A model generated the notes under the pieces. That model saw only the letters and a list, made by a program, of their open reading frames with translations, searched no databases and was not told the DNA's origin. A stretch of 32,619 nucleotides of DNA from Gillisia sp. (lineage in GTDB: Bacteria > Bacteroidota > Bacteroidia > Flavobacteriales > Flavobacteriaceae): NCBI GenBank assembly GCA_024635715.1, contig JAGXIK010000127.1:1-32619 (forward strand), written 5' to 3'. Numbering within the stretch: the first letter of the stretch is position 1; every line of letters begins with the position of its first letter. This document shows positions 488-26,420 of this stretch, piece by piece. The translations under genes were made by a program, and so were the position numbers.

Positions 488-3400
488 ATGGATAAAACCT
501 TACCCACCAAACATCTTTCAGCAAGAGTCCCATGGCATGATAACAAATGGAATGGCACGATATGCTGTAATGTTCTGGATAATTCATTTTGCAGAATCCT
601 GCCAAAAATTGATAGTGAAAAAGATCATGTAAAAGAAGAAGATGGTGCTCACATTCAGGATAACAATTTACCACCCTGTATTACTGAGAAAGGGACTTTT
701 CTCTCACCTCATGAATATTCCCGGGAGCTTGAGCATGCTTGGGTAAATATCAATCCATTATTCAAGGAGTTTAAACCTGCTATTTATTATCATAAGCCCT
801 ATTCATTTAATGTGATTCCTTTTAAATGGATGCTAAAAGAAAAGGCAAATTTTGATAAACCGCATTTTTCAGATAAAGCACAGCAGTATGAACTTGGTTA
901 TGATGTAGACCTGGAGGAAAAAGTAGATCAAAAACTGGGATTTCCCGGTAATACCTGGGTGCAAAACGCGAAAAATCAAAAGGAACTTCTCGACACTTTT
1001 TTTGGTTGTCTTAAAAAGAGAAAGTCTTTGGTCTTTTTTTATGCGAAGCATACACCGCTGAGTGAAACAAATGAGAGGGTAATAGTTGGTGTGGCGAAAG
1101 TCAATAATGATTTTTCTGAAATTATACCTTACAAATATCCGGAAGGATATAATGGGCATAAAAGCTATGCATGGGATAGATGTGTTGAGCATACCTTAAA
1201 TGGATCTAAAAGCAGTGAAGGCTTTTTAATGCCTTATCATGATATAATTAAATATCAGAAAGATTCTGAAGCTAATCTGGAAATGCATGATTACGTTGCA
1301 GTAGCACCAGATTTTGAGCAGTTTTCTTATGCGTCAGAATTAGTGGAACATGATGTTGCCATAGATTCGTTACTGATTTTAGCCGAAAAACTTAGAAAAG
1401 CAGCACTATTATTACAAAAAGATTTTAAACAGGAACTGCAATGGATTGATCTGGAGGTATCAAAACTGTGGGATATGAGGGGAGCCTTTCCCGGTATGGG
1501 TGCTGTATTATCTGCTTTAAAGTTTAGTAATGGTAATAGTGTAGCCTGGGCAATTGAAAAAAGTATTCTGGAAAATTATGGAGATCTTTTAGCCGCAAAC
1601 CCCTGGGATGTATTAGAAAATCACTTCAGGGGGAAAGATGTTATTCCAAGACTTCAAGAATTAAGTGACAATACCGAAAAAATAATATTGGAGTCTATAC
1701 CTGCAGTCAAGAAAGATTTTTATAAAACGCTTAGCAGATTTTATCTAAATAATGATCAAGCTGAACATATTAATAAAAACTTTAAAGCTCTTGGCGGTGA
1801 AAGAGTCCTTTTAGAGAATCTTTATTTACTTTTTGAAAAAACCAGATTTGATGAAAATGGTTTAAGTTTTCGACAAATCGAAAAGGCGCTATTGCCCCCT
1901 GATAAAATCATCAATGCCTTTCCTCTACCTGATGATGTTAAATTGGATAGTAGATTAGATCCCAGACGAATAAGGGCATTATGTGTTTGGATTCTTGAGA
2001 TGGCATCAGATGAAGGACATTCTTTACTGCCTTTTGATGATTTATTAAACCGTTTACAGGAAAAAAATCTGGAGCAGGAGTTCCCCATTAATGAAGATAT
2101 TTTAAAAAATGTATTAGAAAATGAATTCTGTCAGTCGGAACTTCAGTTAATAGATAATGGGAATATTGTTTTCGTGAAACTTCAAAGATTAAGTAAAATA
2201 AAAGGTATCCTTCGGCAAAGACTTAATCTTGAGAGAATTATGTCAAGACCATTTAATATTAAAAAAGACTGGAACAGGCTTATTGAAGAAGGGATAAACA
2301 AATCTATTGTAGATACCGGAAAAGAATATTTACCAAAAAAACCTGATGATAAAGGCTATGAACAGGAAGTAAAAGCAAGAAATGAAAAAGCGGAAGCTTT
2401 GCGAGTTCTGACTAATTATAGATTTAGTGTTTTAATTGGCCCGGCAGGTTCAGGAAAAACCACCCTGCTTCAAACCTTTGAAAGGCTTCCTGAAATTCAG
2501 GAAGGAGGGCTTATTAAACTTGCGCCTACGGGAAAAGCAAGAGTAAAGCTGGGAGCGGACGGAAAAACAGTCGCGCAATTTCTTTATCCCCATAGATATG
2601 ATGGTAGGACTGGTAGATATCACCTTAATCCAAATGCACCTAAAAATGCAGGAGCCAAAAACTTAATTATAGATGAAGCTTCAATGCTTACTGAGGAGCA
2701 ATTGGCTGCAATCTTCGATTCCCTAGGTGTAGTTGATAGAATAATTCTTGTTGGGGATTATAGGCAGTTACCTCCTATAGGTACAGGCCGGCCCTTTGTA
2801 GATATTGTTAAAGCGATTAAACCACAAGAATTTCATGATCCCGAAATACTTGTTGGTCCCGGCTATGCCCAACTTCAACAAATAATGCGACAAGCTGAGG
2901 ATGGAGATAGGAGATTAGATGTTGAGCTAAGTAAATGTTTTGGAGATGAAATTGATAAGAATCATTTAGAGGTTTTTAATGAAGTAGCGAATAAAAAAAT
3001 AAATACCCGTCATATAAGATTGGAAAAATGGTATGAGAGTACTGATTTCAGGAAATTATTTAAAAGTGTTCTGGAGGAGGAACTTCATCTTGATCAAGAG
3101 GATTTAGTCAAATCTTTTAATAGAAAAATTGGAGCTAAAGATGTTGGTAATTACCAATATTTTAATAGTGGACATGCAGAAGCGGTTATCGAAGAATGGC
3201 AGATAATATCTCCAGTGAATGGGTACGGATATGGTGTAAAAGAAGTTAATAAAAATGTTCAAACAACCTATCGATATACAACCATAGAGTTAGCTCATAA
3301 CCTGAATGATGGTAGTAATTTCAAAAAAAGACAGATAGCTAAACCCAAAGGGAGTGATAATGTGGTTTATGGAGATAAAGTAATTAATCTAAATAACCAT

Positions 3401-4294
3401 AAATGGCAGGATTGGCAACATATTGTTCCACAAGATAAAAAGCAGGAAGCTTTAAATTATATAGCAAACGGGGAAATTGGCAGTATAGTAGGTCAGTTTA
3501 GGTCTTATAAAAGCAAACAATCTGGTGAACCGGCAATTGATATAGCATTTTCCACCCAAAAAGGTTATAGCTATCGTTTTTGGCCAAGCGACTTAAAGGA
3601 AGACGGAAAGTACAATTTTGAACTGGCCTATGCTATTACGGTTCATAAAAGCCAGGGTAGTGGATTTAAAACAGTCTTTTTTATCCTTCCGTCAAAAGGT
3701 TCCATTCTCAGTAAAGAGTTATTGTACACCGCTTTAACAAGGCAAGAAGAAAAAATCATCATCCTTCATCAGGGGGAATTTAGAGACTTTTTAAAACTTG
3801 CATCTACTGAAGCATCAGCTACAGCACGTCGTTTTACGGATCTGTTCCAATTTCCCGCTCTCAAAGAGATAAATCAGAAATTTTATGATGCAAATTATAT
3901 TAACATAAGTGAAAGGGGTGAGCCAATGTTAAGTAAAAATGAAGTTATTATTGCAAATTGTCTTAACAAATACAAGGATACTATTACCTATGCCTATGAG
4001 GATAAATTAAAGATTGAAACTTCTGGAAGAACCATAAAGCCAGATTTTACAGTTCAAAACATTGTAACGGGTAGAGAATTCTATTGGGAGCATTTAGGTA
4101 TGATGGCTAAAACCAGCTACAGGGAAAAATGGGAGAAAAAATTAAAAGGTTATTTGGATGATGGTTTTGTATTACATGATAGTGCCACTTGGGAGGATGA
4201 CAAAGTACTAATTGTAACTGAGGAGAATCCTAATGGCGGCATTAACTCTATGGCAATTAATGAATTAGTGCGTAAAGTAATTTTAGAAGAGTAA
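488..4294 (+). CDS. RecD-like SF1 DNA helicase with probable C-terminal PD-(D/E)XK nuclease-like module
   Basis: 1268-aa ORF. Walker A IGPAGSGKTTLL, Walker B LIIDEASML, motif III LVGDYRQLPPIG, late motifs AITVHKSQGSGFKTVFF and LLYTALTRQEEKIIIL. C-terminal KPDFTV...REFYWEHLGM pattern resembles a PD-(D/E)XK core. Confidence 0.88.
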   Translation: MDKTLPTKHLSARVPWHDNKWNGTICCNVLDNSFCRILPKIDSEKDHVKEEDGAHIQDNNLPPCITEKGTFLSPHEYSRELEHAWVNINPLFKEFKPAIYYHKPYSFNVIPFKWMLKEKANFDKPHFSDKAQQYELGYDVDLEEKVDQKLGFPGNTWVQNAKNQKELLDTFFGCLKKRKSLVFFYAKHTPLSETNERVIVGVAKVNNDFSEIIPYKYPEGYNGHKSYAWDRCVEHTLNGSKSSEGFLMPYHDIIKYQKDSEANLEMHDYVAVAPDFEQFSYASELVEHDVAIDSLLILAEKLRKAALLLQKDFKQELQWIDLEVSKLWDMRGAFPGMGAVLSALKFSNGNSVAWAIEKSILENYGDLLAANPWDVLENHFRGKDVIPRLQELSDNTEKIILESIPAVKKDFYKTLSRFYLNNDQAEHINKNFKALGGERVLLENLYLLFEKTRFDENGLSFRQIEKALLPPDKIINAFPLPDDVKLDSRLDPRRIRALCVWILEMASDEGHSLLPFDDLLNRLQEKNLEQEFPINEDILKNVLENEFCQSELQLIDNGNIVFVKLQRLSKIKGILRQRLNLERIMSRPFNIKKDWNRLIEEGINKSIVDTGKEYLPKKPDDKGYEQEVKARNEKAEALRVLTNYRFSVLIGPAGSGKTTLLQTFERLPEIQEGGLIKLAPTGKARVKLGADGKTVAQFLYPHRYDGRTGRYHLNPNAPKNAGAKNLIIDEASMLTEEQLAAIFDSLGVVDRIILVGDYRQLPPIGTGRPFVDIVKAIKPQEFHDPEILVGPGYAQLQQIMRQAEDGDRRLDVELSKCFGDEIDKNHLEVFNEVANKKINTRHIRLEKWYESTDFRKLFKSVLEEELHLDQEDLVKSFNRKIGAKDVGNYQYFNSGHAEAVIEEWQIISPVNGYGYGVKEVNKNVQTTYRYTTIELAHNLNDGSNFKKRQIAKPKGSDNVVYGDKVINLNNHKWQDWQHIVPQDKKQEALNYIANGEIGSIVGQFRSYKSKQSGEPAIDIAFSTQKGYSYRFWPSDLKEDGKYNFELAYAITVHKSQGSGFKTVFFILPSKGSILSKELLYTALTRQEEKIIILHQGEFRDFLKLASTEASATARRFTDLFQFPALKEINQKFYDANYINISERGEPMLSKNEVIIANCLNKYKDTITYAYEDKLKIETSGRTIKPDFTVQNIVTGREFYWEHLGMMAKTSYREKWEKKLKGYLDDGFVLHDSATWEDDKVLIVTEENPNGGINSMAINELVRKVILEE

Positions 4295-4717
4295 GCGAAG
4301 TAGGAGCTATGTGGATTACGCTTTAAGAGTTAATGTTGATACATTTTCCAATTCAGTATTACTAACTTTTCTTTAATATAGAACGATGAATAGCATCTCC
4401 CTGTAAATTATTACGGTAGCATCAAAATCACAAGAAGATTGGTCTATTAGAGTTTTTTAATTTTTATTTCCTGCCAGAACCTGGGTAAAAGTCCAAATAG
4501 ATTGTTTTCAATTTTTTATTATGATCTCATCTATCCTTTTTCGCTAATATTTTTACCATTGTTCAAATAATGTTCATTCCATAGTAAATGCTGTTAAGAT
4601 TTTTCCTCCAAAAAAATAGTTAAAATTTTACGATAAAAATTTGTTAAAACCCATAAATTGTATTAATTATACAGTTCCCTACTCTTCACCTAACACAAAC
4701 CTATATTGAATATAAAT

Positions 4718-6097
4718 ATGAATCTTTTTTCAACTAAATTTTCTTCGGAAAAGAGAGAGTCTTTACTAATATTTTTCCAACATATTACAAAAATTATTTT
4801 ATTCTGTTTTCTCTTACAGTCCTGTCAAAATGATACTAATAGAAATAAGGATTCAGAAAAGGATATTAACACAGGGAATACAATAGAAAACCAAACTAAA
4901 GCTAGAAACAGCTTACGAAGCATTAACTTCTATTTAGAAAATTCAGGAAGTATGGATCCTTACACCAAGGGAAGCACTGATTTCAATCGAACTCTAAACA
5001 CTTTGCTTAGGGATATTGATTTGTTACCATTGGATACGGTAAAATTATTTGCAGCGAACACCAAAATTTATCCGTTAAATCAAGATCTGGACGCTTTCAT
5101 AAACTATCTGTATAATAAAGGAATTCCTTCAGAAGGAGATACTAATAATAGCGACCTCCATCTCATATTTCAAAACTTACTTGATGGTCACGAAAACGGC
5201 AGTGTCTCGATTCTTGTTACAGATGCCATTTATTCTGTCGAAGGTACAAGAGAAAAACTGTTGGGAAATCTTGAACAAAAGGCTTTAAAAACAAGAAATT
5301 ATTTTTACAAAACTTTACAAGAAAAAGATTTTGCCACCCTCACGTTAAAAATGGATTCTGAATACAATGGATTTTATTATCCTGCGGTGGGCGGTAGAAT
5401 TGAAATAAACCAAAAGCGGCCTTATTATATATGGTTTTTCGGGGATGGTAAACTTCTGAAAGAATTTTCAGAGAAATTGAAGTTGTATAATTTACCGGGC
5501 TACCAAGATTTCGTTTACAGTGTTAAAAACAGTAACGAACCAATTGCATACTCCATTGTTGAACACAGTGTAGGTGACATTGGTAATTTTAAAAACACAA
5601 ATCGGGGATCATATCCTGTACATTCAATACAAGATGCAGAAGAAGCTGGTCGGGGAGAGAACAGGGGTCAATTTGGATTTGCTGTAGCCGTCGATTTTTC
5701 AGAAACTCCTCTTCCAAATAATCATCTTCTGGATATAAGTAATTATAACGTTACATCTGACGAATATGAACTATATAATATTAAGGCGATAGATTCAGGT
5801 TTGGATGATAAGGCAAAGGACTATTTGAAAATTGTTGAGAAGTCCTTAGAAGGAACAAATTTTACCCATTTACTCTTCTTGAAAACTGATAAAAAATTTC
5901 TCCAAACCTTTGAAGTTGAGCTTAAAAATGAAATTCCTAACTGGATTAATAAAACAGGCATTAACGATGACACAGAAATTGTAGGGGATACACAACATAC
6001 ATTCGGGTTTGATAAACTTATAGGTGGGATATTAAAAGCTTATGACGAGGTAAACAAAGGAGAGAATATATACTCTATTAGATTAACAGTTAAATAA
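4718..6097 (+). CDS. Lipoprotein with von Willebrand factor A-like domain
   Basis: ORF track starts at TTG 4706; ATG at 4718 is likelier. Signal/lipobox LFCFLLQSC-QND; MIDAS-like FYLENSGSMD followed by SVSILVTDAIYS. Confidence 0.7.
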   Translation: MNLFSTKFSSEKRESLLIFFQHITKIILFCFLLQSCQNDTNRNKDSEKDINTGNTIENQTKARNSLRSINFYLENSGSMDPYTKGSTDFNRTLNTLLRDIDLLPLDTVKLFAANTKIYPLNQDLDAFINYLYNKGIPSEGDTNNSDLHLIFQNLLDGHENGSVSILVTDAIYSVEGTREKLLGNLEQKALKTRNYFYKTLQEKDFATLTLKMDSEYNGFYYPAVGGRIEINQKRPYYIWFFGDGKLLKEFSEKLKLYNLPGYQDFVYSVKNSNEPIAYSIVEHSVGDIGNFKNTNRGSYPVHSIQDAEEAGRGENRGQFGFAVAVDFSETPLPNNHLLDISNYNVTSDEYELYNIKAIDSGLDDKAKDYLKIVEKSLEGTNFTHLLFLKTDKKFLQTFEVELKNEIPNWINKTGINDDTEIVGDTQHTFGFDKLIGGILKAYDEVNKGENIYSIRLTVK

Positions 6098-6107
6098 AAA
6101 TTGAATT

Positions 6108-6524
6108 ATGAATGATTGGTTCGCAAATCGTTTTGAAGATTTTCTGATTTACGATCAGCAGTTCTCAGATTATGTGCACAAAGCCCATGATTATCAAATG
6201 CTGGGAATTTTTTTAATAATAATACCTATACTAGTATTCTTCGTATTCTATAAGCCTATCGATCCACAACCTGTAAAATTGTGGAAATGGTTTGTTACCT
6301 TTTTAATTTCCGCTGTATTGCTGTTTCTTACGGCATATTACTGGTTGTATTCAAACAGTATGTATAATCCTATTCAAAATGAACAAATGAGTGATATGAG
6401 TGCTGTTTCCTTCACTCTCCAATTATCTTTCTGGGCTGTTGTATTTTCAATTATACCTGCGCTTCTGTTTAGTTGGATTTGGAGTAGGACCGTTAGTATT
6501 AACAATGCCAAAAACCCTTTTTAA
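6108..6524 (+). CDS. Small multi-pass membrane protein
   Basis: 138 aa with three hydrophobic stretches (MLGIFLIIIPILVFFVFY; WFVTFLISAVLLFLTAYYWL; LSFWAVVFSIIPALLFSWIW). 10 nt after the previous stop. Confidence 0.75.
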   Translation: MNDWFANRFEDFLIYDQQFSDYVHKAHDYQMLGIFLIIIPILVFFVFYKPIDPQPVKLWKWFVTFLISAVLLFLTAYYWLYSNSMYNPIQNEQMSDMSAVSFTLQLSFWAVVFSIIPALLFSWIWSRTVSINNAKNPF

Positions 6525-6527
6525 ATT

Positions 6528-8015
6528 ATGTCAAAATTATATGTATTTGGAATTGGCGGTACAGGTGCAAGGGTTATGAAATCCCTTACTTTTATGCTTG
6601 CTTCAGGAGTGAAATTATCTAACGATATTGACACCGTAGTTCCTATTTTGATTGATCCTGACTTTGGTAACGGAGATTTAACCAGGACTAAACAATTATT
6701 GGATCTCTATATGAAGATCAATAAAAAGGCACAGTATGAGGAAGGACTTTTCACCACAAAAATTAAAACGCTAAGTGAACTTTCTAATTCTGCTGGAAGT
6801 ATAGGGGATAAATTTAAAATGCTGGATGTTAGTGGTGCCCAGAATGAAAAGTTTCGTGAGTTTATAGGATATAGCTCTCTTTCTTCGGAAAATAAGGCTC
6901 TAATAAACCTCTTTTTCTCTGAAAACAATTTAAATGCGGATATGACGGTTGGCTTTAAAGGAAATCCAAATATTGGTAGTATTGTTTTAAATCAATTTAA
7001 AAATTCAAAAGAGTATAAAGTCTTTTTAAATTCCTTTGAACCGGATGATTCCATATTTATTGTAAGCTCCATATTTGGTGGAACCGGTGCTGCTGGCTTT
7101 CCACTCCTACTGCGCAATCTTAGAAAGATAGATCCTAATTTATCGAACTCCAAGAATGTTGCGAATTCAAAAATTGGAGCTCTTTCAATGATGCCTTATT
7201 TTAAAATTAATACACCAACAGATATTGCAAATCAAACGATAGATTCTTCAAGTTTTATGGGGAAGGCCAAAGCTGCTCTTTCTTTTTATTCTAATTCTAT
7301 ATTTGGGAATAATAATCAATTGAATTCTTTCTACACCCTGGGAGAAGATGTGGCAAATTTTTATGAGCATAATGATGGACAGGCTGCTCAAAAAAATGAT
7401 GCTCATTTTCTTGAATTTGCCGCAGCCTTGGCAATAGTTGATTTCACGTGGGATTTGCAAAATCTTGAAACCAAGGATGAAAAGGCTGTACAAACATCAT
7501 TCAAGGAATTTGGAATTCAGGCCGCTTTGAAGCGGCGGCTTAGTTTTAAAACCCTAGGAGGGAAGTCTAAGAAACAGGTTCTTACCCCAATGTCGAAATT
7601 GTATTTAATGTTTTTGTTTCATAAGCACCTTCATCAAAACAAAAAAGACTTCGAAAAATCCCCGTGGCATATACATCTTGAAGAGGTATATTCAAATGAT
7701 GGCTTGTACGATCAATATCTCAAGGATTTCGGGGAACATTTCTTAAGCTGGATCCAGGAAATGAAGAAAAACGATATAGCATTTAATCCCTTTAAATCCG
7801 AAGTTTCTTATCCTAAGCTTCTAAATTTTATTGAAGATTATGAAGTCAAGAAGCCCGGATTAAAGTTTTGGGACAATCCTGCAGACGGGGATAAATTCAA
7901 TAAGATTTTAAACTCCGAATATAAGACGAGCCAAAAAACAGATGATAAGGGATCAGACTTTTTGAAACTCTTTGATAGAGCTACAGAAATACAAGTTAAT
8001 TCAATTACAAAATAG
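6528..8015 (+). CDS. Tubulin/FtsZ-like GTPase-fold protein
   Basis: 495 aa. N-terminal glycine loop KLYVFGIGGTGARVMKSL and internal tubulin-signature-like IFIVSSIFGGTGAAGFPLLLRNLR (compare GGGTGxG). Confidence 0.72.
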   Translation: MSKLYVFGIGGTGARVMKSLTFMLASGVKLSNDIDTVVPILIDPDFGNGDLTRTKQLLDLYMKINKKAQYEEGLFTTKIKTLSELSNSAGSIGDKFKMLDVSGAQNEKFREFIGYSSLSSENKALINLFFSENNLNADMTVGFKGNPNIGSIVLNQFKNSKEYKVFLNSFEPDDSIFIVSSIFGGTGAAGFPLLLRNLRKIDPNLSNSKNVANSKIGALSMMPYFKINTPTDIANQTIDSSSFMGKAKAALSFYSNSIFGNNNQLNSFYTLGEDVANFYEHNDGQAAQKNDAHFLEFAAALAIVDFTWDLQNLETKDEKAVQTSFKEFGIQAALKRRLSFKTLGGKSKKQVLTPMSKLYLMFLFHKHLHQNKKDFEKSPWHIHLEEVYSNDGLYDQYLKDFGEHFLSWIQEMKKNDIAFNPFKSEVSYPKLLNFIEDYEVKKPGLKFWDNPADGDKFNKILNSEYKTSQKTDDKGSDFLKLFDRATEIQVNSITK

Positions 8016-8021
8016 ATTAAG

Positions 8022-11000
8022 ATGGCAAAGGTTTTTAGAATTTTTAATAATTCCGGATCAAATAAGACCGATTGGTTCAATTCCAGTCAAATTGGTGGAG
8101 GCGCCATTGATTCAATTACAGTCCAGGAAACTGATGGTAAAAAATTACCAACTTCTATTCCCAGCCCTTTTGCACAATTGGATCTGGTTAGAAATGCATT
8201 TAAAACTGTAAGCGATGAAGCGAGGATTGATGTAGATCTCGATTCCCGAAAAGACAGCCATAGGCTAGTTTCCAATGCATTAGATATAGGTCAAATCCTT
8301 TTTAATCTGGAAAAAAATTTAGACACTATTTCTATTGAAGTATGGAATAAAAAAGGAGATCTACAGAAACTGAAAGATTCTAACTCCTCAGAGTTAAAGC
8401 ATCTAGGGAAAACTCTGGAATTGTTCCTTACATCTTCAGATGCAAAATCCAACAATTTTGATAAGCTTTCAGATATATTTATTTTAAAATATAATAATAG
8501 GGTTATTGGTGGTACTTCTCCCAAAACCTTATTTTTTGCTTCCGCTGATTCTGTAAAGGTGGGTGTTGATATACATTGCGGGAATGATAAAATGTTGGAC
8601 AACCAACCTTTAGCATTATATAAAAGAGATCCAAAATATATCAAGGCATTATTCTATTTAAAACAACAAAGTAATTTCGCTTCACTTTTTCCAGAATTTG
8701 AGGAATATTTAGATCTTACTCTGTCACATATTTCTAGTTTTGATGTTGCTTTTGCCAATTCACTTTCCCAACTAAATGGTAGTAATGATTTTTTGGATCT
8801 TACCCTTCCAACTAATTCAGGTGTTTTTGTTGAGCCTCTACCAGGCGTCCGTATTCAGAAGCAAATTCCCAGAGATCCTGTTAATAGTGATTTTAAAATA
8901 CTTACACACAAAAATGTTGCTAGGCCACCATTGGTATTACCTATAGATACATACACCGATAGGGGGATATATACAGATGAGGAATGGAAATCCGATACGA
9001 AAGTACCGTTATTTGATAATAATCCCCTTGATGCGCGGACGCTTCCAAGAGTAAAGGATCATTATCCCTATCTAACCATTGGAGACCTCTTAACAGAAAA
9101 TATTTTTAAACTACCTTATAAAATAGATGAAGAGAAGTATTTGTGCATTCCTGGATATGAGAATTATCTGCTTCCACTTACAAAAGTCTTTTTCGACTAT
9201 TTTACTACAGAAGATATATTGAAAAACAAAAACTTTTTAAAGTTTCAATCCATTGCCGGGGATTCTATAGAAGTTACATTGAATATTCCCATTCAAAAAG
9301 GTAAATCAATTCCCTATACAAAAAGGTATAGTAAGACCTCTTCTCTGACCTTGAACCCTCACAAGGTGGGGAATATTTTGGATACGGATTTTACCTTAGG
9401 AATATATCCATTTGCAAAATCAAAGTTTGTACCTGTAGATTATGCAGTTGCTGTTGCCGAAAATGAAACTGCCCGGGCGATGGATAATTTCACCTTTTAT
9501 AAGAGTGAAGACAACACTTCCATAGTCATGAATGAAAGGGAAAGAATGAAAATGGAGGGGCTTCACAGTACCTATTACCTCACAGAATCACCTTTTGATT
9601 ATGTTGTTGTTGGAACGGAGGCTATAAAAAACATTTTAATTCCAAAGCTAAAGGAGCATAAAAATACAGGACTACATTACGAATTTGCAATAGACTTGGG
9701 TACCACTAATACACATATTGAATATAAAACCAGTAATAGTGAGCAGCCAAATCCATATAGTCTGGAAAAATCAAATTTTGGTTACTTAAGAAATAAGAAA
9801 GAGGAATTAAGAGGTCAGGCTAAAGTAAATTCAGAAGTTTGTGAAAAGCTTTTAAACCAGGAGGTTATTCCAAACGAACTGGGAAATGAGCGTTATAGTT
9901 TCCCGTTTAGATCAGTTCTTTTAGAAAACAAATCTATTAACTATGATAGGCCACATTATTTATTCAGCGATGTAAACATTGGTTTTGATTACGGGAAAGT
10001 GGATATTTCAGAGCATTTAGAAGAGGTCACTGATTTAAAGTGGCTTCATCTCAACGAAAACTTCAATAATGAAAAAATCAAAAAATTCATTCGGGAGCTC
10101 TTATTGTTATGTAAGAATAAGGTTTTAATGACCGACGGAAACGTGGGAAGAACTAAAATAACGTGGCTTTATCCCACAAGCATGACATATAATCAACGCA
10201 ATCTTTTTGAAGATATTTGGAAAGCTGAGTATCTAGATGTGTTTCGTGTGAGCGATCTTGCCAATCTTAGATCATTGCCAGAAAGCATTGCTCCATTTTA
10301 CTACTACACCGGCTTCACAGCATTGATGAATCATACACAACCAACTGCAACCATTGATGTAGGAGGAGGGACTTCAGACATTACAATTTTTGAACAGAAT
10401 AGACCAAAGCTTATATCATCTTTTAAATTTGCCGGGAATACAATTTTTGGAGATGGTTATTCCAACAGTATCACCCACAATGGATTTATAAAGCAGTTCA
10501 CTTCGGTAATTAAGAAGAAACTTATTGCGAATCAGGATAAAACAGCAACTGAAATTAAAATATTAGAAGAAATTTATGGACGGGGAAAATCCATAGACGT
10601 TTCAAATTATTTCTTTTCGTTGAAAGATAACCATCATTTAAATAAAGAGAATCTCACAATAGATTATTTTTCCCTTCTAAAGAAAGATCAGGAAACTAAG
10701 GTTGTATTTGTCATTTTCTATAGTGCTCTGATTTATCACCTGGCTCAACTGATGAAAGATTCGGGACTTGCTTTGCCACGTCATATTCTTTTTAGTGGAA
10801 CCGCTTCCAAATCAATTAATCTACTGGATTCCACCCTTACAAAAGTGAGTCGTTTATTTAATGAGATTTTTAATGAGGTTTATAATAAGGATGATGCTAA
10901 TATTGAGGTGAGAATTGATGAATCTCCTAAGATTATAACTGCACGTGGTGCTCTTAAAGCAGAGGAAATTTTAGAAATAGAAAACCTTATTCATACTCAG

Positions 11001-11339
11001 GTTGGAACTAACGGCACAAAATTCAATTCATCCTTGACTTATGATGAGATTGGAGAAAATGTCATTCAGGAAGTATTAGAAAATGTTTCAAACTTCTTTT
11101 CTCTTGTTGATAAAATTAATACAAAGCTGGATTTCAACAAATCTTTCGGTGTATCCAGTGCTTCTTACGAGGTATTTAAAGAAATTCGTAATGAGAACAT
11201 TCACGATTATCTACTGCAAGGTTTACATGATCGGAAAAAAGACGTTAATGACACTGCTTCCAGTTTAGAAGAAACCCTATTTTTCTATCCCTTTATAGGT
11301 TTATTAAACGAATTAGCTGCAAAGGTTGTAAATCAATAA
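8022..11339 (+). CDS. Large actin/Hsp70-like ATPase
   Basis: 1105 aa. Phosphate-1 motif FAIDLGTTNTHIEY, phosphate-2 motif ATIDVGGGTSDITIFE, adenosine-like motif HILFSGTASKSINLLD, all in the C-terminal half. About 540 aa of unassigned N-terminal region. Confidence 0.78.
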   Translation: MAKVFRIFNNSGSNKTDWFNSSQIGGGAIDSITVQETDGKKLPTSIPSPFAQLDLVRNAFKTVSDEARIDVDLDSRKDSHRLVSNALDIGQILFNLEKNLDTISIEVWNKKGDLQKLKDSNSSELKHLGKTLELFLTSSDAKSNNFDKLSDIFILKYNNRVIGGTSPKTLFFASADSVKVGVDIHCGNDKMLDNQPLALYKRDPKYIKALFYLKQQSNFASLFPEFEEYLDLTLSHISSFDVAFANSLSQLNGSNDFLDLTLPTNSGVFVEPLPGVRIQKQIPRDPVNSDFKILTHKNVARPPLVLPIDTYTDRGIYTDEEWKSDTKVPLFDNNPLDARTLPRVKDHYPYLTIGDLLTENIFKLPYKIDEEKYLCIPGYENYLLPLTKVFFDYFTTEDILKNKNFLKFQSIAGDSIEVTLNIPIQKGKSIPYTKRYSKTSSLTLNPHKVGNILDTDFTLGIYPFAKSKFVPVDYAVAVAENETARAMDNFTFYKSEDNTSIVMNERERMKMEGLHSTYYLTESPFDYVVVGTEAIKNILIPKLKEHKNTGLHYEFAIDLGTTNTHIEYKTSNSEQPNPYSLEKSNFGYLRNKKEELRGQAKVNSEVCEKLLNQEVIPNELGNERYSFPFRSVLLENKSINYDRPHYLFSDVNIGFDYGKVDISEHLEEVTDLKWLHLNENFNNEKIKKFIRELLLLCKNKVLMTDGNVGRTKITWLYPTSMTYNQRNLFEDIWKAEYLDVFRVSDLANLRSLPESIAPFYYYTGFTALMNHTQPTATIDVGGGTSDITIFEQNRPKLISSFKFAGNTIFGDGYSNSITHNGFIKQFTSVIKKKLIANQDKTATEIKILEEIYGRGKSIDVSNYFFSLKDNHHLNKENLTIDYFSLLKKDQETKVVFVIFYSALIYHLAQLMKDSGLALPRHILFSGTASKSINLLDSTLTKVSRLFNEIFNEVYNKDDANIEVRIDESPKIITARGALKAEEILEIENLIHTQVGTNGTKFNSSLTYDEIGENVIQEVLENVSNFFSLVDKINTKLDFNKSFGVSSASYEVFKEIRNENIHDYLLQGLHDRKKDVNDTASSLEETLFFYPFIGLLNELAAKVVNQ

Positions 11340-11352
11340 TTTGAGACCCCAA

Positions 11353-12123
11353 ATGAATGTATTTTTTACATCTGCCATAACAACAATTCCATTTTTATTT
11401 TTTCAAATAGACTCTATAAGTAGCACAGAAATCTGGATACATAGAGTTGGTCTTGCTGTCTGCTTTATCTTGATTGTATTACTTCTACTAGCAAAACAAG
11501 AAAAGCGAAAGAGGATAAAATCCTCTCAAAGCTATAATGCTGGAGAAAGCAATGATGGAAGTTTAGAATTAGAATTAAATGCTCTTAGACAAAGAGTGCA
11601 GGTTCTTGAAACAAATAGAAATTCTGGTCAATCCATAAAAAAAGAAATCTCTAAATCAAGTGGAAATAAAGTAAAACTTCAGAGCGAATCTGAACTCGGG
11701 GAAAACAATAATTCTAGTCAGAAACTAAACCCTAATGAAGTAGAAGAGGAAATTCCTTCACTCGAAATCGATCTTCCTCTTGATAAAAGGAAGAGGTTGG
11801 AAGAAGAGAAGAAGAGTGAAATATTTTATCTCAGTTCACCGGATAAGGATAAAGCTTTTTTTGCGCCCGAAGCCACATTTAGACCTAATGAGAAAACAAT
11901 GTATTCCCTTGATGGTGATTGCTTAAAGCTTTACGACAGGATCGATGAACAAACAATGCGGTTAGCACTTAATTCTCTTGATATTCTCGTAAAAAGAGTT
12001 TGCGAAGTCCAAAATGCCAAGGAGCCTCAGCATACAAAAATTGTGATGATAGAACCAGGAAAAGTAATAAGAGAGAGAGATGATTTTTTGGTAACGAGCA
12101 AAATGAAGGTAAAATTCGAATAG
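11353..12123 (+). CDS. Membrane-anchored protein with charged, probably coiled-coil linker
   Basis: ORF track starts at TTG 11341; ATG at 11353. Two N-terminal hydrophobic segments, then a K/E/S-rich linker and a soluble C-terminus. Confidence 0.65.
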   Translation: MNVFFTSAITTIPFLFFQIDSISSTEIWIHRVGLAVCFILIVLLLLAKQEKRKRIKSSQSYNAGESNDGSLELELNALRQRVQVLETNRNSGQSIKKEISKSSGNKVKLQSESELGENNNSSQKLNPNEVEEEIPSLEIDLPLDKRKRLEEEKKSEIFYLSSPDKDKAFFAPEATFRPNEKTMYSLDGDCLKLYDRIDEQTMRLALNSLDILVKRVCEVQNAKEPQHTKIVMIEPGKVIRERDDFLVTSKMKVKFE

Positions 12124-12124
12124 T

Positions 12125-13603
12125 ATGTTAGAAGTAGAATTAATTTTTCTGTCTATAATTGTTGTTTTTCAGATCTATTCAGTTATAAATATTTGGAATC
12201 GAATAAGTGTATTGGATTCAATTTTTATCGAAAGCTCAATTTGGGATAGCGATACAAAACAATTTTTATATTCAGGAAAAAATAAAGTCAAGGCCACAAT
12301 TATTGGAACTATTAATCAATATATCCTAAAGAACGAGGGTGGTGTAATTGATTTTCATATCATCAATGATATTGTTGAAAGAAATGTTGACACCATTGAT
12401 GAAGAAATTTCCAATAAACTTTCAACTCCTTTATATTTAGGCTTGGCCGGTACAATGATTGGAATCATAATCGGTCTATTTTATGTTGATTTCTCTTCAA
12501 GTGTAGATATTTCCCCTGGCTCAGGTGTGAATGGAGATAGTGATGACCTTCTAAAGATTTCACCTTTAATAGATGGAGTGAAATATGCAATGGGAGTAAG
12601 TGTACTGGGTCTTATTCTCACTACAGTACTGTCTGTATGGATTTATAAAAATGCTAAATCGAAAGTCAATCAAGGGAAGAATGAATTTCTTTCTCAGATT
12701 CAAACAGAGTTACTTCCTACTTTAATCAAATCTGGTGATGTGGCTATTCAGGAGCTTTCTAAAGAGTTGCGAGTTTTTTCGCAATCCACTCCGATTATGG
12801 TAAATAGTTTAAAAGAGAACACCGGAGTAGTTAAAGAAACCATTGAGAAGGAGATCAATCTTCTTAATCAAATAAAAGCTCTTGATGTAAAGAAACTATC
12901 TCAAAGTAATGTTGAAATATTTCATTCTTTATCAGGAATGATGGAATCCTTTCAAGCATTCCCGGAGTACTATGAAGAACTAAATCGATCTCTTGGAAAT
13001 ACAGTCGAACTAAATAAAAATCTTCAAAGCTTAGTAAATTCTTCCCAGAACGTAAATGCGATTCTTACTGATGTAAAAAAAATAATTGAAACCGGAAATT
13101 CAGCAGCTACATTTTTCAATCAGCATATCAAAAGTTTTGAAACATATTCCGATGCTGTAAATCATTCCATCTCAGAGACAAATCAATCCTTTGATCGGGC
13201 TATAGGACAACTTAAGGAAGCTGTAGGTGCGCAAATGGAAGTTTTTAATGTCGCAATAGCTGAATATGATTCAAAGCTGTCAAAATCCTTTGATCAGGCA
13301 ATTGAAAAATACAATGCTGCTTATGAGAATGCACTTCCAGATTTTAAAAATCTGGAACATCTTAAAAAGTTAGATACACTTCAAAAGTCAAATTCTACCT
13401 TGGAAGAGATTCAGACTATTTTAGCAAAGCATACAAAGGTTCTTGAAAACTTAAAACTCCAGCTCCCGGAAAACCTTAATTTAAGTATGAAACAGGAGAA
13501 AGGGATTTTCGAATATATAAGGGATGGAATAATAATTTTCACTTGTACTACTGTAACAACTGTTGCCATTTATATTGCAATTAATTACCAAGGAATATTT
13601 TGA
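12125..13603 (+). CDS. MotA/TolQ/ExbB-type (ZorA-like) stator subunit with long tail
   Basis: 492 aa. STPLYLGLAGTMIGIIIGLFYVDF and GVKYAMGVSVLGLILTTVLSVWIY resemble the MotA/ExbB TM core. Long helical tail and a C-terminal TM (GIIIFTCTTVTTVAIYIAI). Confidence 0.75.
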   Translation: MLEVELIFLSIIVVFQIYSVINIWNRISVLDSIFIESSIWDSDTKQFLYSGKNKVKATIIGTINQYILKNEGGVIDFHIINDIVERNVDTIDEEISNKLSTPLYLGLAGTMIGIIIGLFYVDFSSSVDISPGSGVNGDSDDLLKISPLIDGVKYAMGVSVLGLILTTVLSVWIYKNAKSKVNQGKNEFLSQIQTELLPTLIKSGDVAIQELSKELRVFSQSTPIMVNSLKENTGVVKETIEKEINLLNQIKALDVKKLSQSNVEIFHSLSGMMESFQAFPEYYEELNRSLGNTVELNKNLQSLVNSSQNVNAILTDVKKIIETGNSAATFFNQHIKSFETYSDAVNHSISETNQSFDRAIGQLKEAVGAQMEVFNVAIAEYDSKLSKSFDQAIEKYNAAYENALPDFKNLEHLKKLDTLQKSNSTLEEIQTILAKHTKVLENLKLQLPENLNLSMKQEKGIFEYIRDGIIIFTCTTVTTVAIYIAINYQGIF

Positions 13604-14259
13604 AAAAGAAAAGCTTCTTTTGGGTAGGATACGCAGATTTACTTACAAGTTTATTCTTTGTGATGCTAGTGCTGTTTGTTGTTACTTTCGCAATATTAAA
13701 GGAGAAAAACAATAGGCTTATTTCGCAAAATATCCAGTTGGAATTAATAAAGGAGGTAGAAAAGGCCCTGGGATCTCTTGATCATAAGTATTTCGAATAT
13801 GATCAGGTAAACAAAAGATATAAATTAAAACAGGATATTTCCTTTAGAAGTGGAAGCGATGATTTTAATGATTTATCTGAGGATGAAAAAGCGTATTTGG
13901 AGGAAGCAGGAAGGGAACTTTTTTCTACGATAAAGGACCTCATTAAGGAAAATCCTAATATTGAGTATTTACTTATTGTAGAAGGTAATACTCAAAGAGC
14001 AGTCTTTAATGGTCAATGGAATTATGAATCCATTCCCGATGTTGGTTATGAACTCAGTTATAGGCGAGCTCTTGCCCTAGTAAATTTTTGGAAGATAGAT
14101 AGAAATATTCCATTTAATGAAATTGAGGACAATTGCGAACTGCTTATTGCTGGTAGTGGCTATTTTGGTCAATCTCGACAAACAGAGGAGGAATTGAATA
14201 GGAGATTCTCTATACAGGTAACTTCCAAGGTGGGAAAATTTTTAAATAAGGGCCAATGA
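13600..14259 (+). CDS. MotB/OmpA-type (ZorB-like) stator subunit
   Basis: TTG start overlapping the previous stop. FFWVGYADLLTSLFFVMLVLFVVTFAIL (MotB-like TM with Asp) plus OmpA-like VEGNTQ...LSYRRALALVNFW...LLIAGSGYFG...NRRFSIQV. Confidence 0.82.
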   Translation: MKKKSFFWVGYADLLTSLFFVMLVLFVVTFAILKEKNNRLISQNIQLELIKEVEKALGSLDHKYFEYDQVNKRYKLKQDISFRSGSDDFNDLSEDEKAYLEEAGRELFSTIKDLIKENPNIEYLLIVEGNTQRAVFNGQWNYESIPDVGYELSYRRALALVNFWKIDRNIPFNEIEDNCELLIAGSGYFGQSRQTEEELNRRFSIQVTSKVGKFLNKGQ

Positions 14260-15020
14260 AATTTTTAATTGGATTGTCAATTATATGCATTCTTTTGACC
14301 TCCTGTGGTGGGAGAAATAAGGATAATATATTAGAACCAGGTGGGCCAGGACCAAAAGATGGAGGTGGAGAAATTTATGATAGTGATGGACCTAGCATAG
14401 AAGAGGAGGTGAACAAAGGGAGACCGCAAGAAGTGGAAGAAACAATTCCTAAAGTACCTCCTCCAAAAATGGTTTCAGAGCTTTTCCAGGACCTAAAAAA
14501 CGGTGTATTTGTAGTTAAAACAATTTTAGGTGAAGAGTTTTATACGCAGGGGAGTGGTTTTTTTATAGCAAAGGGGATTGGTATTACTAATTATCATGTT
14601 CTTCAGGGCAGTGACCAAGGTTTTATTGTTCTTTCTCCTGATAATGTTTTTCCCATTACCCGGATCTTATCAAGCAGTCCACCGGATAAACTTGATTATG
14701 TCATCTTTGAAACCGATGTGAAGGAAAATATATCATTATCTATTTCAAAGCGTAATCCCGAAATTGGAGAAGATGTTTTTGCAATTGGAACTCCCAAAGG
14801 GTTGAATAATTCATTAACAAAAGGTACGATTTCTGGAATTAGGAAAAATCAGAGAATACAAATAGATGCTACAATCGATCACGGTAGCTCCGGAGGTCCA
14901 TTGTTTAACCTTCAAGGGGAAGTTATAGGTATAACCACCTCAGGTGTAGGAACTGGTTCTGAATTAAATTTTGCTGTCAACATCCAAGCTTTACCTTATG
15001 AAAGATATATTAGAAATTAA
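14256..15020 (+). CDS. Trypsin-like (S1/HtrA-type) serine protease lipoprotein
   Basis: Lipobox ICILLTSC-GG. Catalytic-type motifs GIGITNYHVL (His), KLDYVIFE (Asp) and IDHGSSGGPLFNLQGEVIGITTSG (Ser). Confidence 0.87.
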   Translation: MKFLIGLSIICILLTSCGGRNKDNILEPGGPGPKDGGGEIYDSDGPSIEEEVNKGRPQEVEETIPKVPPPKMVSELFQDLKNGVFVVKTILGEEFYTQGSGFFIAKGIGITNYHVLQGSDQGFIVLSPDNVFPITRILSSSPPDKLDYVIFETDVKENISLSISKRNPEIGEDVFAIGTPKGLNNSLTKGTISGIRKNQRIQIDATIDHGSSGGPLFNLQGEVIGITTSGVGTGSELNFAVNIQALPYERYIRN

Positions 15021-15026
15021 TTTTAT

Positions 15027-15599
15027 ATGATAAGTGTAAAACCATTATTTCTAGCTCTTCTCATTAGCTTAACTACTTGTGAAAGAACGGTCGATAGAAA
15101 TATTGAATCTCATCCAATAATGGATGAAAAAATTAATGAAATTGAGCCGAAGAGTCACAATTCTGAAGATCAACCTTCAGGCAAGATATTTCTGAAAGGG
15201 CAAATTACTCGTATTGTAGATGGCGATACGGGCGAATTTCTTTACAATGGTGAACTTCCCTTGATGATTCGACTTCAGCACATCGATGCCCCGGAAAAAC
15301 GCGGTAAGCAACCATATGGAAATAAAGCTAAACAAATATTATCAGATCTGTGCTTTGGTCAAAAGGTAACAGTAATAACCGATGGAGAATTTGATATGGG
15401 TGGTCGTCTTATCGGGGAAATCATTAATGAAGAAAATATAAATGTCAATAAAGAAATGGTCCGTCTTGGATATGCCTGGCATTTTAAAAAATATTCTGAA
15501 GATTTGAGTTACGATATATTGGAAAAAGAAGCTCGTAATAATAGACGAGGACTTTGGCAGGAGCCATCACCCGTGGCTCCCTGGAACTATAGGAGGTAA
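15027..15599 (+). CDS. Thermonuclease/SNase-like nuclease, predicted lipoprotein
   Basis: Lipobox-like LISLTTC-ER. SNase motifs ITRIVDGDTGEF, MIRLQHIDAPEKR, GNKAKQILSDL, GRLIGEI, VRLGYAWHFKKYS, EARNNRRGLW. Confidence 0.88.
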   Translation: MISVKPLFLALLISLTTCERTVDRNIESHPIMDEKINEIEPKSHNSEDQPSGKIFLKGQITRIVDGDTGEFLYNGELPLMIRLQHIDAPEKRGKQPYGNKAKQILSDLCFGQKVTVITDGEFDMGGRLIGEIINEENINVNKEMVRLGYAWHFKKYSEDLSYDILEKEARNNRRGLWQEPSPVAPWNYRR

Positions 15600-21497: not shown

Positions 21498-22109
21498 ATG
21501 AAAAAAAACAAATTACTATCCGGCCTTGCTCTCTTATTAATAACTTTTTTCATTACCTGGATGTGTTTTGTGAATTTGGGGAATCTTAAAGTGAACCGAT
21601 ATAAAAAAGAAGTTGAGGTGGTCAAAGCCACGCTGAAAGAAGGTAATTATAATAAAGAATATTGCGTCCTGGTGGATTTTTCCCTGCACAGTGGTAAAAA
21701 ACGAATGATCCTGTATGATCTACAGAATGAGAAAATTAAGAGAACTTTTATGGTAGCCCATGGAGAGGGCTGTGGACAGGAAAACGGCAAACCCCAATCC
21801 TTTAGCAATGTTCCTAACAGCTACTGCTCTAGTGAGGGAATGGCAGTGATAGGGAATAGGGATTATAGTAATTGGGGAATAAATATAAAGTATTGGTTGA
21901 AGGGTCTGGATGATACAAATAATAATATGCGGAAGAGGGTAGTAGTAATTCACTCCTGGGGAGGAATTCCTGAATTTTCAATATATCCTTTTAAACTTGT
22001 TCAAAGTCAGGGATGTTTCACGATATCCAACAATTCGTTAAAATATTTGGACGAATTTATATTCCGGCAGGATAATAAAAAATTGCTGTTTTACACTTTT
22101 AGTCATTAA
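21498..22109 (+). CDS. Murein L,D-transpeptidase catalytic domain (YkuD_2-type) family protein
   Basis: N-terminal TM, then MVAHGEGCG...SFSNVPNSYCSSEGMAVIGNRDYSNWGINIKYWLKGLDDTNNNMRKRVVVIHSW...QSQGCFTIS. Confidence 0.72.
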   Translation: MKKNKLLSGLALLLITFFITWMCFVNLGNLKVNRYKKEVEVVKATLKEGNYNKEYCVLVDFSLHSGKKRMILYDLQNEKIKRTFMVAHGEGCGQENGKPQSFSNVPNSYCSSEGMAVIGNRDYSNWGINIKYWLKGLDDTNNNMRKRVVVIHSWGGIPEFSIYPFKLVQSQGCFTISNNSLKYLDEFIFRQDNKKLLFYTFSH

Positions 22110-23535: not shown

Positions 23536-24072
23536 TCAATCATATTTCCAAACAAATCCATAATGGGTCTTTTTATATCCTAAACATACCTGTGTTACCG
23601 CATTGGGTCTGAAGCCATGTTTTGATACTTCTTTAGCGTAGCCGTAAGTACGAACAAGCTCTCCATTAAGAGTATATTGATAAACCTTTCGTTTGATCTT
23701 TTCTCGGCCCTTCATAAATGCCCCATTGTGCGCTAAGTTTTTAGCATGAGTTGTCCATTCAAGATTTTCAGCTTTATTGTTTGCCCGGTCTTCATCTAAA
23801 TGATTTACCACGTTGAGGTTATGGGGATTATCAACGAAGTGTTCCGCCACCAAACGATGAACGCTATAGGTAGTTTTAACTCTATCTTTGGTAAGTCCTA
23901 CATTTACGTAACCCAGATGCTTGTTCGGTTTGCAGCTAAATAGCAGTTCTTTCTGATATCGTATAGTGCCATTTAAACGAGTTATGTACCTGCCAAGTCG
24001 CTTAACCTGGCCCATATTACTTGTTTCGTAAAGACCTTCATAATTCTTTATTTGTTTCCATTCTTGTTCCAT
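23536..24072 (-). CDS. NUMOD4/HNH-type homing-like endonuclease
   Basis: EWKQIKNYEGLYETSNMGQVKRLGR (NUMOD4), VHRLVAEHFVDNPHNLNVVNHLDEDRANNKAENLEWTTHAKNLAHN (HNH), VYQYTLNGELVRTYGYAKEVSK (NUMOD1-like). Confidence 0.88.
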   Translation of the reverse strand: MEQEWKQIKNYEGLYETSNMGQVKRLGRYITRLNGTIRYQKELLFSCKPNKHLGYVNVGLTKDRVKTTYSVHRLVAEHFVDNPHNLNVVNHLDEDRANNKAENLEWTTHAKNLAHNGAFMKGREKIKRKVYQYTLNGELVRTYGYAKEVSKHGFRPNAVTQVCLGYKKTHYGFVWKYD

Positions 24073-24334
24073 TTATACCTTGTTTTAGTAAGTATAATGG
24101 CAGATAAAAAAAAGGAAATAGTTTATGTGAAAAAATAACTAGTACAGGAGAAAAAAATGGAAATTGTGCGAAAATACTCTGGGCCCGGGAAAAAAAATTG
24201 AATCTTACTAGGTGAAGCAAGTAGACAGGATTTCATATCAGATACCAGTCCCACCAAAATTCATTAAATGATATTTAGCTGTAAATAAACTAAATGTAAT
24301 TTTTTATCCCTAAAAAAATCCCAAGACTTTTTGT

Positions 24335-24365
24335 AAAAACAAAGCCTCACAGTGAGGTGAGGCTC
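24335..24365 (-). terminator. Probable rho-independent terminator for the minus-strand gene ending at 24440
   Basis: Minus strand GAGCCTCACCTCACTGTGAGGCTTTGTTTTT: GC-rich stem followed by a T run. Confidence 0.6.
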
Positions 24366-24439
24366 CAACAGTTTGATTTCATTTGTCAATAGTCGCTATT
24401 ATCTATTAGAGAAGCCAGTTATAGGGAAACTGAAACTAC

Positions 24440-24907
24440 TCACAATTTATTTAAATTAGCTCTTGTTTTCGCTCTTGCAGTTTCTTCCTTAACAAATCGG
24501 ACTATTTTTTGCTGTTCAGATGTAAGGTCTTCCCAAGTTGATTTACGTTTTCTCTTACTCGGATATTGCTCTTTTAGGGCGTTAAGTCTATCATCTACCT
24601 TCTCCATGTGGGTTCTGCGGTCTATCCAACCCGTAGGCGGGTCGCCAGGTAATAATTTTATGTTGAACCCCACCACCTCTTTTATAATTTTTATCGGGAT
24701 GAAAAGAATTAAAAAAATCAACAATAGTGGCAACATTACAACTGCCCCCATGAATTTAAAGTCACCTGCATAATCACCTGTGGGCAATTTAGCTGTAGCA
24801 TTGTTAAAGGCATTCACCCATTTCTCCGCTTCGAGGTCATATCTGTGGTTGGTTATGCCGTTGTCATTCGGTCTCCATTGATAATTAGTTTGGCTTGGCA
24901 TTGGCAT
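24440..24907 (-). CDS. Hypothetical membrane protein, 155 aa
   Basis: Hydrophobic MGAVVMLPLLLIFLILFIPIKII; followed by a terminator; has a decayed paralog at 22592-22900. Confidence 0.65.
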   Translation of the reverse strand: MPMPSQTNYQWRPNDNGITNHRYDLEAEKWVNAFNNATAKLPTGDYAGDFKFMGAVVMLPLLLIFLILFIPIKIIKEVVGFNIKLLPGDPPTGWIDRRTHMEKVDDRLNALKEQYPSKRKRKSTWEDLTSEQQKIVRFVKEETARAKTRANLNKL

Positions 24908-26149: not shown

Positions 26150-26171
26150 AGTTGTCGTTTTTTATTATTTA

Positions 26172-26285
26172 AATGTCAGGAAACACTAATATACGGTTAT
26201 TTTTTGACATTATATTAAATAAATTTCATTTGGGATACCATAAAACAACATAATGTCAGATATTGATCTTTTCTGACATTATATT
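26172..26285. repeat. Four TGACAT half-sites in alternating orientation upstream of the recombinase
   Basis: ATGTCA 26173-26178, TGACAT 26205-26210, ATGTCA 26253-26258, TGACAT 26274-26279. Perfect 11-bp inverted pair ATAATGTCAGA/TCTGACATTAT; direct pair TTTTTTGACATTATATT/TTTTCTGACATTATATT. Confidence 0.8.
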
Positions 26286-26420
26286 TGGCTGTTGTGAATT
26301 AATTAAAATATTTAGCCCTTGGCGTGGTAGTAGAATCAAAGTTTTTTTTATTTCTCCTCAAACTGGTGGAAATAAGAGTCCATTGGTACACAAAAGTGGA
26401 TTAGCAAGAAGTGACCCCTT

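What the first reader, a model, noticed from the sequence alone, without database searches (positions are those of the whole stretch)
6528..11339. Adjacent tubulin-like and actin-like NTPases, a rare pairing in one operon
SIFGGTGAAGF plus GIGGTGARV (tubulin-like), directly followed by DLGTTNTHIEY / DVGGGTSDITIFE / SGTASKS (actin/Hsp70-like). The actin-like motifs start only about 550 aa into a 1105-aa protein, leaving a large novel N-terminal region.
Basis: partly seen in the sequence, partly recalled or inferred. Interest (0 to 1): 0.8.

Follow-up and report, generated by a model that had tools for sequence, protein, structure and literature searches.

The report
Bacterial tubulin-actin pair in motor operon
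A conserved bacterial gene cluster, mostly in Bacteroidota, encodes a tubulin relative next to a large actin relative, plus a proton-driven motor resembling the Zorya anti-phage motor and swappable exported enzymes that cut protein and DNA; it is probably an unstudied cell-envelope machine, perhaps for defence.

Summary
Window 6528-8015 encodes a tubulin/FtsZ-superfamily protein and 8022-11339 an actin/MreB/Hsp70-superfamily protein, 6 bp apart. AlphaFold models are confident (pLDDT 88.0 and 88.4), and Foldseek's top hits are all FtsZ/tubulin and MreB/Hsp70/actin. The actin motifs start at residue 558. The 550 residues before them are conserved in relatives and match nothing in the PDB by sequence. 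The pair is one part of a nine-gene operon (4706-15599): vWA-like lipoprotein, 3-TM protein, tubulin, actin, 1-TM protein, ZorA-like and ZorB-like motor subunits, trypsin-like lipoprotein, exported SNase nuclease. Tubulin directly precedes actin in 85 of 89 loci studied, mostly Bacteroidota; a Gloeothece (cyanobacterial) mobilizable plasmid carries vWA-TM-tubulin-actin too. At the 3' end, three unrelated peptidase types and three unrelated nuclease types replace one another, a pattern seen in conflict systems. SrfB membership was tested and rejected. Closest known are the FtsZl1/Tubulin_2-vWA systems (Makarova & Koonin 2010), the tubulin or HSP70 GTPase-centric systems (Kaur 2020), and Zorya. 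I judge this a new variant combining them. Most likely mechanism, inferred only: an envelope motor and NTP-driven switch that releases an exported peptidase and nuclease against invading DNA. No function was tested.

The parts
4706..6097 (+). vWA-like lipoprotein, 463 aa (TTG start, or an ATG 4 codons on); lipid-attachment Cys40; MIDAS-like E78-x-S80-x-S82-M and D173
   Evidence: C40 in 99%, E78 99%, S80 94%, S82 99%, D173 100% of 79 relatives; no Pfam hit alone; the cyanobacterial homologue (E 9.4e-19) has canonical DGSGS
6108..6524 (+). small membrane protein, 138 aa, three predicted TM segments
   Evidence: present in 82 of 89 loci; Y48 100%, W61 95%; hydropathy
6528..8015 (+). tubulin/FtsZ-superfamily protein, 495 aa, divergent Tubulin_2 branch; predicted alpha-helical C-terminal half
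   Evidence: T1 GxGGTGxR and T4 FGGTGAxG invariant in 78; AF2 pLDDT 88.0, pTM 0.92; Foldseek top hits all FtsZ/CetZ/TubZ/tubulin, best E 2.5e-5, prob 1.00
8022..11339 (+). actin/MreB/Hsp70-superfamily protein, 1105 aa; conserved N-terminal region ~1-550, actin-type ATPase domain ~553-980
   Evidence: phosphate-1, connect-1, phosphate-2 and adenosine motifs conserved in 80; AF2 pLDDT 88.4; Foldseek best MreB 4czj_B E 2.0e-9, prob 1.00, then ParM, Hsp70, actin
11341..12123 (+). single-TM protein, 260 aa, C-terminal domain conserved (F173, C221, G240)
   Evidence: 81 of 89 loci; conservation; hydropathy
12125..13603 (+). MotA/TolQ/ExbB-like motor subunit resembling ZorA, 492 aa, with a long helical tail
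   Evidence: 10 of 26 relatives hit PF01618; best PDB profile hit 8vvn_C E 2.6e-12, an entry cited in the Zorya structure paper PMC11890865; 73 of 89 loci
13600..14259 (+). MotB-like motor subunit resembling ZorB type I, 219 aa; TM with ion-carrying Asp13 (FFWxSYxDLMT) and OmpA-like domain
   Evidence: 25 of 25 relatives hit ZorB1 models; D13 in 98% of 66; PDB 8vvn_B E 6.9e-15; 64 of 89 loci
14256..15020 (+). exported trypsin-like lipoprotein, 254 aa; one of three interchangeable peptidase types
   Evidence: PF13365 E 3.7e-21; trypsin 19, retropepsin-like 25, transglutaminase-like 5 of 77 loci
15027..15599 (+). SNase-family nuclease with predicted export signal, 190 aa; one of three interchangeable nuclease types
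   Evidence: PF00565 E 7.5e-23; SNase 13, NucA-like 6, EEP/DNase I-like 5 of 77 loci
488..4294 (+). upstream RecD-like SF1 helicase, PADLOC defence candidate PDC-S68; neighbour only, not part of the conserved operon
   Evidence: PDC-S68 1300.9 bits; found in none of the other 88 loci

Best explanation
The locus encodes one envelope-anchored multi-protein machine. Shown: a conserved operon with a tubulin-fold and an actin-fold protein, a lipidated vWA-like protein, two other membrane proteins, a ZorA/ZorB-like motor, and a 3' slot for one exported peptidase and one exported nuclease drawn from unrelated families. Inferred: the ZorB-like subunit grips peptidoglycan and the vWA lipoprotein senses or holds a partner in the periplasm. 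On an envelope disturbance such as phage DNA injection or conjugation, ion flow through the motor and NTP-driven assembly of the cytoplasmic tubulin/actin complex change the state of the complex. This releases or activates the peptidase, which in turn activates the nuclease that degrades incoming DNA in the periplasm. It would work like Zorya (motor senses the envelope, modular nuclease executes) but with a tubulin-actin switch and periplasmic enzymes.
For: Tubulin and actin folds. Tight co-directional operon with gaps of -4 to 10 bp. First four genes together in 82 of 89 loci, all seven core genes in 55, tubulin directly before actin in 85. Tubulin and actin distances correlate best of all gene pairs (r 0.93). 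ZorB likeness with the ion-carrying Asp kept; ZorA likeness. Zorya needs that Asp, peptidoglycan binding and the ZorA tail (PMC11890865). Exactly one peptidase class in 49 of 77 loci and one nuclease class in 24, 21 having both, Fisher p 0.004. Many of the peptidases, of all three folds, share a lipoprotein leader CxGCSRSGR, and L019 is a single protein matched by both the trypsin and NucA profiles, as in the trypsin-NucA cascade of Kaur 2020. Patchy occurrence, about 2% of Bacteroidota genomes, and a cyanobacterial mobilizable plasmid. The window copy lies beside PDC-S68.
Against: No functional data. Most flanking genes are housekeeping; only a handful of 110 flank proteins are restriction-modification or other defence genes. 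25 of 77 loci have neither a recognised peptidase nor nuclease. Some loci (Spirosoma, L007, L010) lack the motor. No relative in 50,697 phage records, and the canonical catalytic T7 loop of tubulins is not conserved, so GTPase cycling is unproven.
Confidence: 0.42

Rival explanations
1. A housekeeping or accessory envelope-remodelling or trafficking machine, as Makarova & Koonin proposed for FtsZl1-vWA-OmpA operons: tubulin/actin polymers and the motor reshape or transport envelope components; the peptidase and nuclease are clean-up enzymes.
For: Same part list of tubulin-like, vWA, OmpA-type and membrane proteins (PMC2875224); flanks mostly ordinary genes; core present without effectors in 25 of 77 loci.
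Against: Patchy occurrence in about 2% of genomes, mobilizable plasmid carriage, and replacement of effectors by unrelated folds at one slot are unusual for housekeeping.
Confidence: 0.3
2. A DNA or nutrient scavenging machine: exported nuclease and peptidase digest external polymers and a PMF motor moves products or DNA inward.
For: Exported nucleases and peptidases, motor of the MotA/TolQ/ExbB kind, DNA-entry nuclease relatives (NucA type).
Against: No transporter, TonB receptor or competence gene is conserved in the operon; tubulin/actin not explained.
Confidence: 0.12
3. A plasmid- or chromosome-segregation cytoskeleton (TubZ/ParM-like) that hitch-hikes in an operon.
For: Tubulin and actin folds related to TubZ, ParM and MreB.
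Against: No centromere-binding adaptor in the conserved operon; a lipoprotein, two membrane proteins and a stator motor point to the envelope; nearly all copies lie on chromosomes or chromosomal contigs.
Confidence: 0.05
4. Artefact: motif matches in unrelated proteins, or assembly chimera.
For: Host is a 65% complete MAG.
Against: Same order in dozens of independent genomes including isolates such as Christiangramia portivictoriae DSM 23547; confident structure models.
Confidence: 0.01

Closest known systems
FtsZl1 / Tubulin_2 (PF13809) vWA systems, Makarova & Koonin 2010 (PMC2875224)
   Same: Divergent tubulin with alpha-helical C-terminal part and no identifiable T7; vWA partner, OmpA-type protein, membrane proteins in one operon.
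   Different: Here 495 aa without the long coiled coil (known members ~1000 aa), below the PF13809 cut-off, T4 is FGGTG not GGGTG; no GTPase or kinase gene; a full-length actin-like partner and a ZorAB-like motor are present. That paper names no actin-like partner.
GTPase-centric (GAP1-N2) conflict systems of Kaur et al. 2020 (PMC7159879)
   Same: Tubulin and HSP70-family NTPases with vWA and membrane proteins in predicted conflict operons; separately, trypsin + NucA cascades (their System 3).
   Different: There tubulin and HSP70 are non-overlapping themes of Firmicutes/Actinobacteria around DO-GTPases and GAP1; here tubulin and actin-like sit together without those GTPases, with a motor, in Bacteroidota.
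Zorya (ZorAB core; PMC11890865)
   Same: ZorA-like and ZorB-like proton-motor subunits with the ion-carrying Asp and an OmpA-type domain, plus exchangeable nuclease effectors.
   Different: No ZorC, ZorD, ZorE, ZorF or ZorG found; effectors are exported, and tubulin, actin-like and vWA proteins form the core.
SrfB (PF07520) / SrfC operons
   Same: Large actin-fold protein in a multi-gene membrane-linked operon with a protease or EEP nuclease nearby (L107, L111).
   Different: Window protein is not matched by PF07520; SrfB lacks the 550-aa N-terminal region and pairs with SrfC and a double GTPase, not a tubulin.

Membership tests
Tubulin/FtsZ superfamily | Tubulin-type GTP-binding fold with T1 and T4 glycine loops | tested here: met
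   Invariant T1 and T4 loops; AF2 pLDDT 88.0; Foldseek top 40 hits all FtsZ/CetZ/TubZ/tubulin, prob 1.00, though TM-scores are low (TMt up to 0.49)
Tubulin/FtsZ superfamily | T7 catalytic loop and FtsZ/tubulin C-terminal domain for head-to-tail polymers | tested here: inconclusive
   No conserved Asp pair after S5 in 78 sequences; C-terminal half predicted helical
FtsZl1 / Tubulin_2 (PF13809) | Score above the Pfam gathering cut-off | tested here: not met
   24.7 bits against 27; relative in L109 passes, so a divergent branch
FtsZl1 / Tubulin_2 (PF13809) | Operon with a vWA protein | tested here: met
   vWA-like lipoprotein in 83 of 89 loci; MIDAS-like residues; canonical in cyanobacterial homologue
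Actin/MreB/Hsp70 superfamily | Phosphate-1, connect-1, phosphate-2 and adenosine motifs in an actin fold | tested here: met
   Motifs conserved in 80; Foldseek MreB E 2.0e-9, prob 1.00; PDB profile hits MreB and Hsc70 at the phosphate-2 region
Actin/MreB/Hsp70 superfamily | ATP hydrolysis and filament formation | not testable with these tools
   Needs biochemistry
SrfB (PF07520) | Match to PF07520 | tested here: not met
   No match at E<=1; true SrfB elsewhere in the genome
Zorya | ZorA and ZorB | tested here: met
   ZorB1 models hit by 25 of 25; best PDB profile hits for both subunits are chains of 8vvn, cited in the Zorya paper
Zorya | ZorC/ZorD, ZorE or ZorF/ZorG effector | tested here: not met
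   No such hit among the ten operon and upstream proteins
GTPase-centric GAP1 systems (Kaur 2020) | DO-GTPase and GAP1 genes | tested here: not met
   No GTPase family hit in the window operon

The most novel reading that the evidence does not exclude
A so far undescribed class of bacterial machine in which a tubulin-family and an actin-family NTPase form one obligate complex or mixed filament that gates a proton-driven, peptidoglycan-anchored ZorAB-like motor and thereby fires a swappable exported peptidase-nuclease cascade against invading DNA.
Probability: 0.2. Interest if true: 0.95.

Novelty: new variant of a known kind. Interest (0 to 1): 0.74.

Why it matters
Tubulin and actin homologues are usually thought of as separate cytoskeletons. 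A conserved operon, found mostly in Bacteroidota and also on a cyanobacterial plasmid, that almost always pairs them and couples them to a rotary-type motor would be a direct place to study mixed cytoskeletal signalling in bacteria, and may be a Zorya-like defence route that acts in the periplasm. The actin-like protein is unannotated in the one annotated record seen (NC_014503), so the pairing is easily missed by annotation.

Tried and rejected
SrfB membership (rejected). Prevalence from the profile search taken at face value (295 of 396 genomes) was rejected because nearly all those hits are ~35-45 residues around one motif in ~420-470 aa frames, which look like FtsA. A transglutaminase HMM that drifted onto the shared lipoprotein leader gave 31 hits; replaced by a strict motif count of 5. 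Phage carriage: no match in phage records; two related IMG/VR contigs (L094, L095) carry the operon but their status as virus was not established. Defence-island test: weak, mostly ordinary neighbours. Promoter and terminator scans were no better than or near shuffles. Literature: searches of open-access papers found no description of the tubulin-actin-ZorAB combination; subscription papers could not be searched.

Full report
OBSERVATION. Pfam gives only sub-threshold hits: Tubulin_2 E 1.7e-5 (24.7 bits, cut-off 27) and FtsA E 0.0019 at residues 776-818. The window is contig C166 of a 65% complete Bacteroidota MAG, with one copy in that genome.

FOLDS. From these, alignments of 78 tubulins and 80 actins were built. 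The tubulin model has pLDDT 88.0 and pTM 0.92; Foldseek against the PDB returns only FtsZ, CetZ, TubZ and tubulins at the top, best E 2.5e-5, prob 1.00. The actin model has pLDDT 88.4 and pTM 0.79; Foldseek returns MreB, ParM, Hsp70 and actin, best E 2.0e-9, prob 1.00. TM-scores are modest (TMt at most about 0.5) and rmsd large, so these are superfamily assignments, not close structural matches. Catalytic-type residues of the actin domain are invariant (D558, E754, D779). The tubulin keeps T1 and T4, but no conserved T7-type Asp pair is seen, and its C-terminal half is predicted helical, as reported for FtsZl1.

OPERON. Profiles of each window gene were run over 89 loci. Found: vWA-like lipoprotein in 83, TM1 82, tubulin 87, actin 89, TM2 81, ZorA-like 73, ZorB-like 64. 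The order vWA-TM1-tubulin-actin-TM2-ZorA-ZorB is kept. Tubulin is directly upstream of actin in 85 of 89, median gap 5 bp; the first four genes occur together in 82 loci and all seven in 55. Two of the four exceptions have genes inserted between the pair (L038, L055) and two are contig ends. Pairwise distances of tubulin and actin correlate more strongly (r 0.93, rho 0.81) than any other pair of genes in the operon. This is partly shared ancestry, so it supports co-inheritance and does not prove contact. The 80 loci are the closest of at least 580, so percentages are for near relatives.

WIDER SPREAD. Two more distant Bacteroidota-phylum loci (L108, L109) pair a tubulin of this family with a full-length relative of the actin-like protein (hhalign E 1.7e-18 over 1010 columns), here with TerD and OmpA-type genes. 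The mobilizable plasmid of Gloeothece verrucosa (NC_014503) carries a vWA lipoprotein with canonical DGSGS (E 9.4e-19), a TM protein, a tubulin (4.4e-52) and the actin-like protein (2e-25), the last annotated 'hypothetical protein'. So vWA-TM-tubulin-actin is the older core and the motor looks like a Bacteroidota addition (inference).

MOTOR. The ZorB-like family has the FFWxSYxDLMT transmembrane motif with the ion-carrying Asp in 98%; all 25 scanned members hit ZorB1 models, and the best PDB profile hit is 8vvn_B, E 6.9e-15. The ZorA-like family best hits 8vvn_C, E 2.6e-12. Entry 8VVN is cited in the Zorya structure paper PMC11890865, which shows that the equivalent Asp, peptidoglycan binding and the ZorA tail are needed for defence.

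EFFECTOR SLOT. Downstream of the core, 49 of 77 loci with a complete 3' end hold exactly one exported peptidase class: trypsin-like 19, retropepsin-like 25, transglutaminase-like 5. 24 hold exactly one nuclease class: SNase 13, NucA-like 6, EEP/DNase I-like 5. 21 hold both (Fisher p 0.004). In many of them the unrelated peptidase folds follow the same lipoprotein leader (CxGCSRSGR), and L019 is a single protein matched by both the trypsin and NucA profiles. Replacement of unrelated folds in one slot is typical of conflict systems (Kaur 2020), which is the main reason for preferring a defence-type reading.

CONTEXT. Real full-length copies occur in 9 of 396 Bacteroidota genomes. Flanks are mostly ordinary genes, with a few type I and type II restriction-modification genes. 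The window copy is next to a PADLOC defence candidate, PDC-S68, absent from the other loci. No phage record holds a relative.

VERDICT. The pairing and folds are close to certain; the multi-gene unit is solid; the function is inferred. As far as open-access literature could be searched, the combination of tubulin, full-length actin-like protein, vWA lipoprotein and ZorAB-like motor is not described, but every component class is known, so I call it a new variant of a known kind.

Noticed in passing
window 488-4294 (+): RecD-like SF1 helicase, strong match to PADLOC candidate PDC-S68 (1300.9 bits); about 410 bp upstream of the operon.
   Followed up: partly
L107 (contig C197 of the window's genome), 1009-11929: The same genome carries a separate SrfB-SrfC operon with a subtilisin-type protease and a double GTPase; in L111 an EEP-type nuclease sits beside SrfB. 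A parallel actin-fold plus hydrolase arrangement.
   Followed up: partly
L108 1172-10172 and L109 368-8455: Tubulin-actin pairs linked to TerD-domain genes and an OmpA-type gene instead of a ZorAB motor.
   Followed up: partly
L007, L018, L016, L040 and others, 3' genes: Peptidases, and more loosely some nucleases, of unrelated folds share a lipoprotein leader of the form C-x-G-C-S-R-S-G-R, suggesting swapping of catalytic domains behind one export tag.
   Followed up: partly
window 23536-28607 (-): NUMOD4/HNH endonuclease, short tyrosine recombinase and a helix-turn-helix (possible replication initiator) protein: the right part of the contig may be a mobile element.
   Followed up: no
window 21498-22109 (+): YkuD_2 L,D-transpeptidase; L010 also has an exported protein that looks like an L,D-transpeptidase just after its operon.
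   Followed up: no
L044 17003-18838, L029 x585, L045 x192: A large membrane protein with a vWA-like stretch inserted between the ZorA-like and ZorB-like genes in three loci.
   Followed up: no
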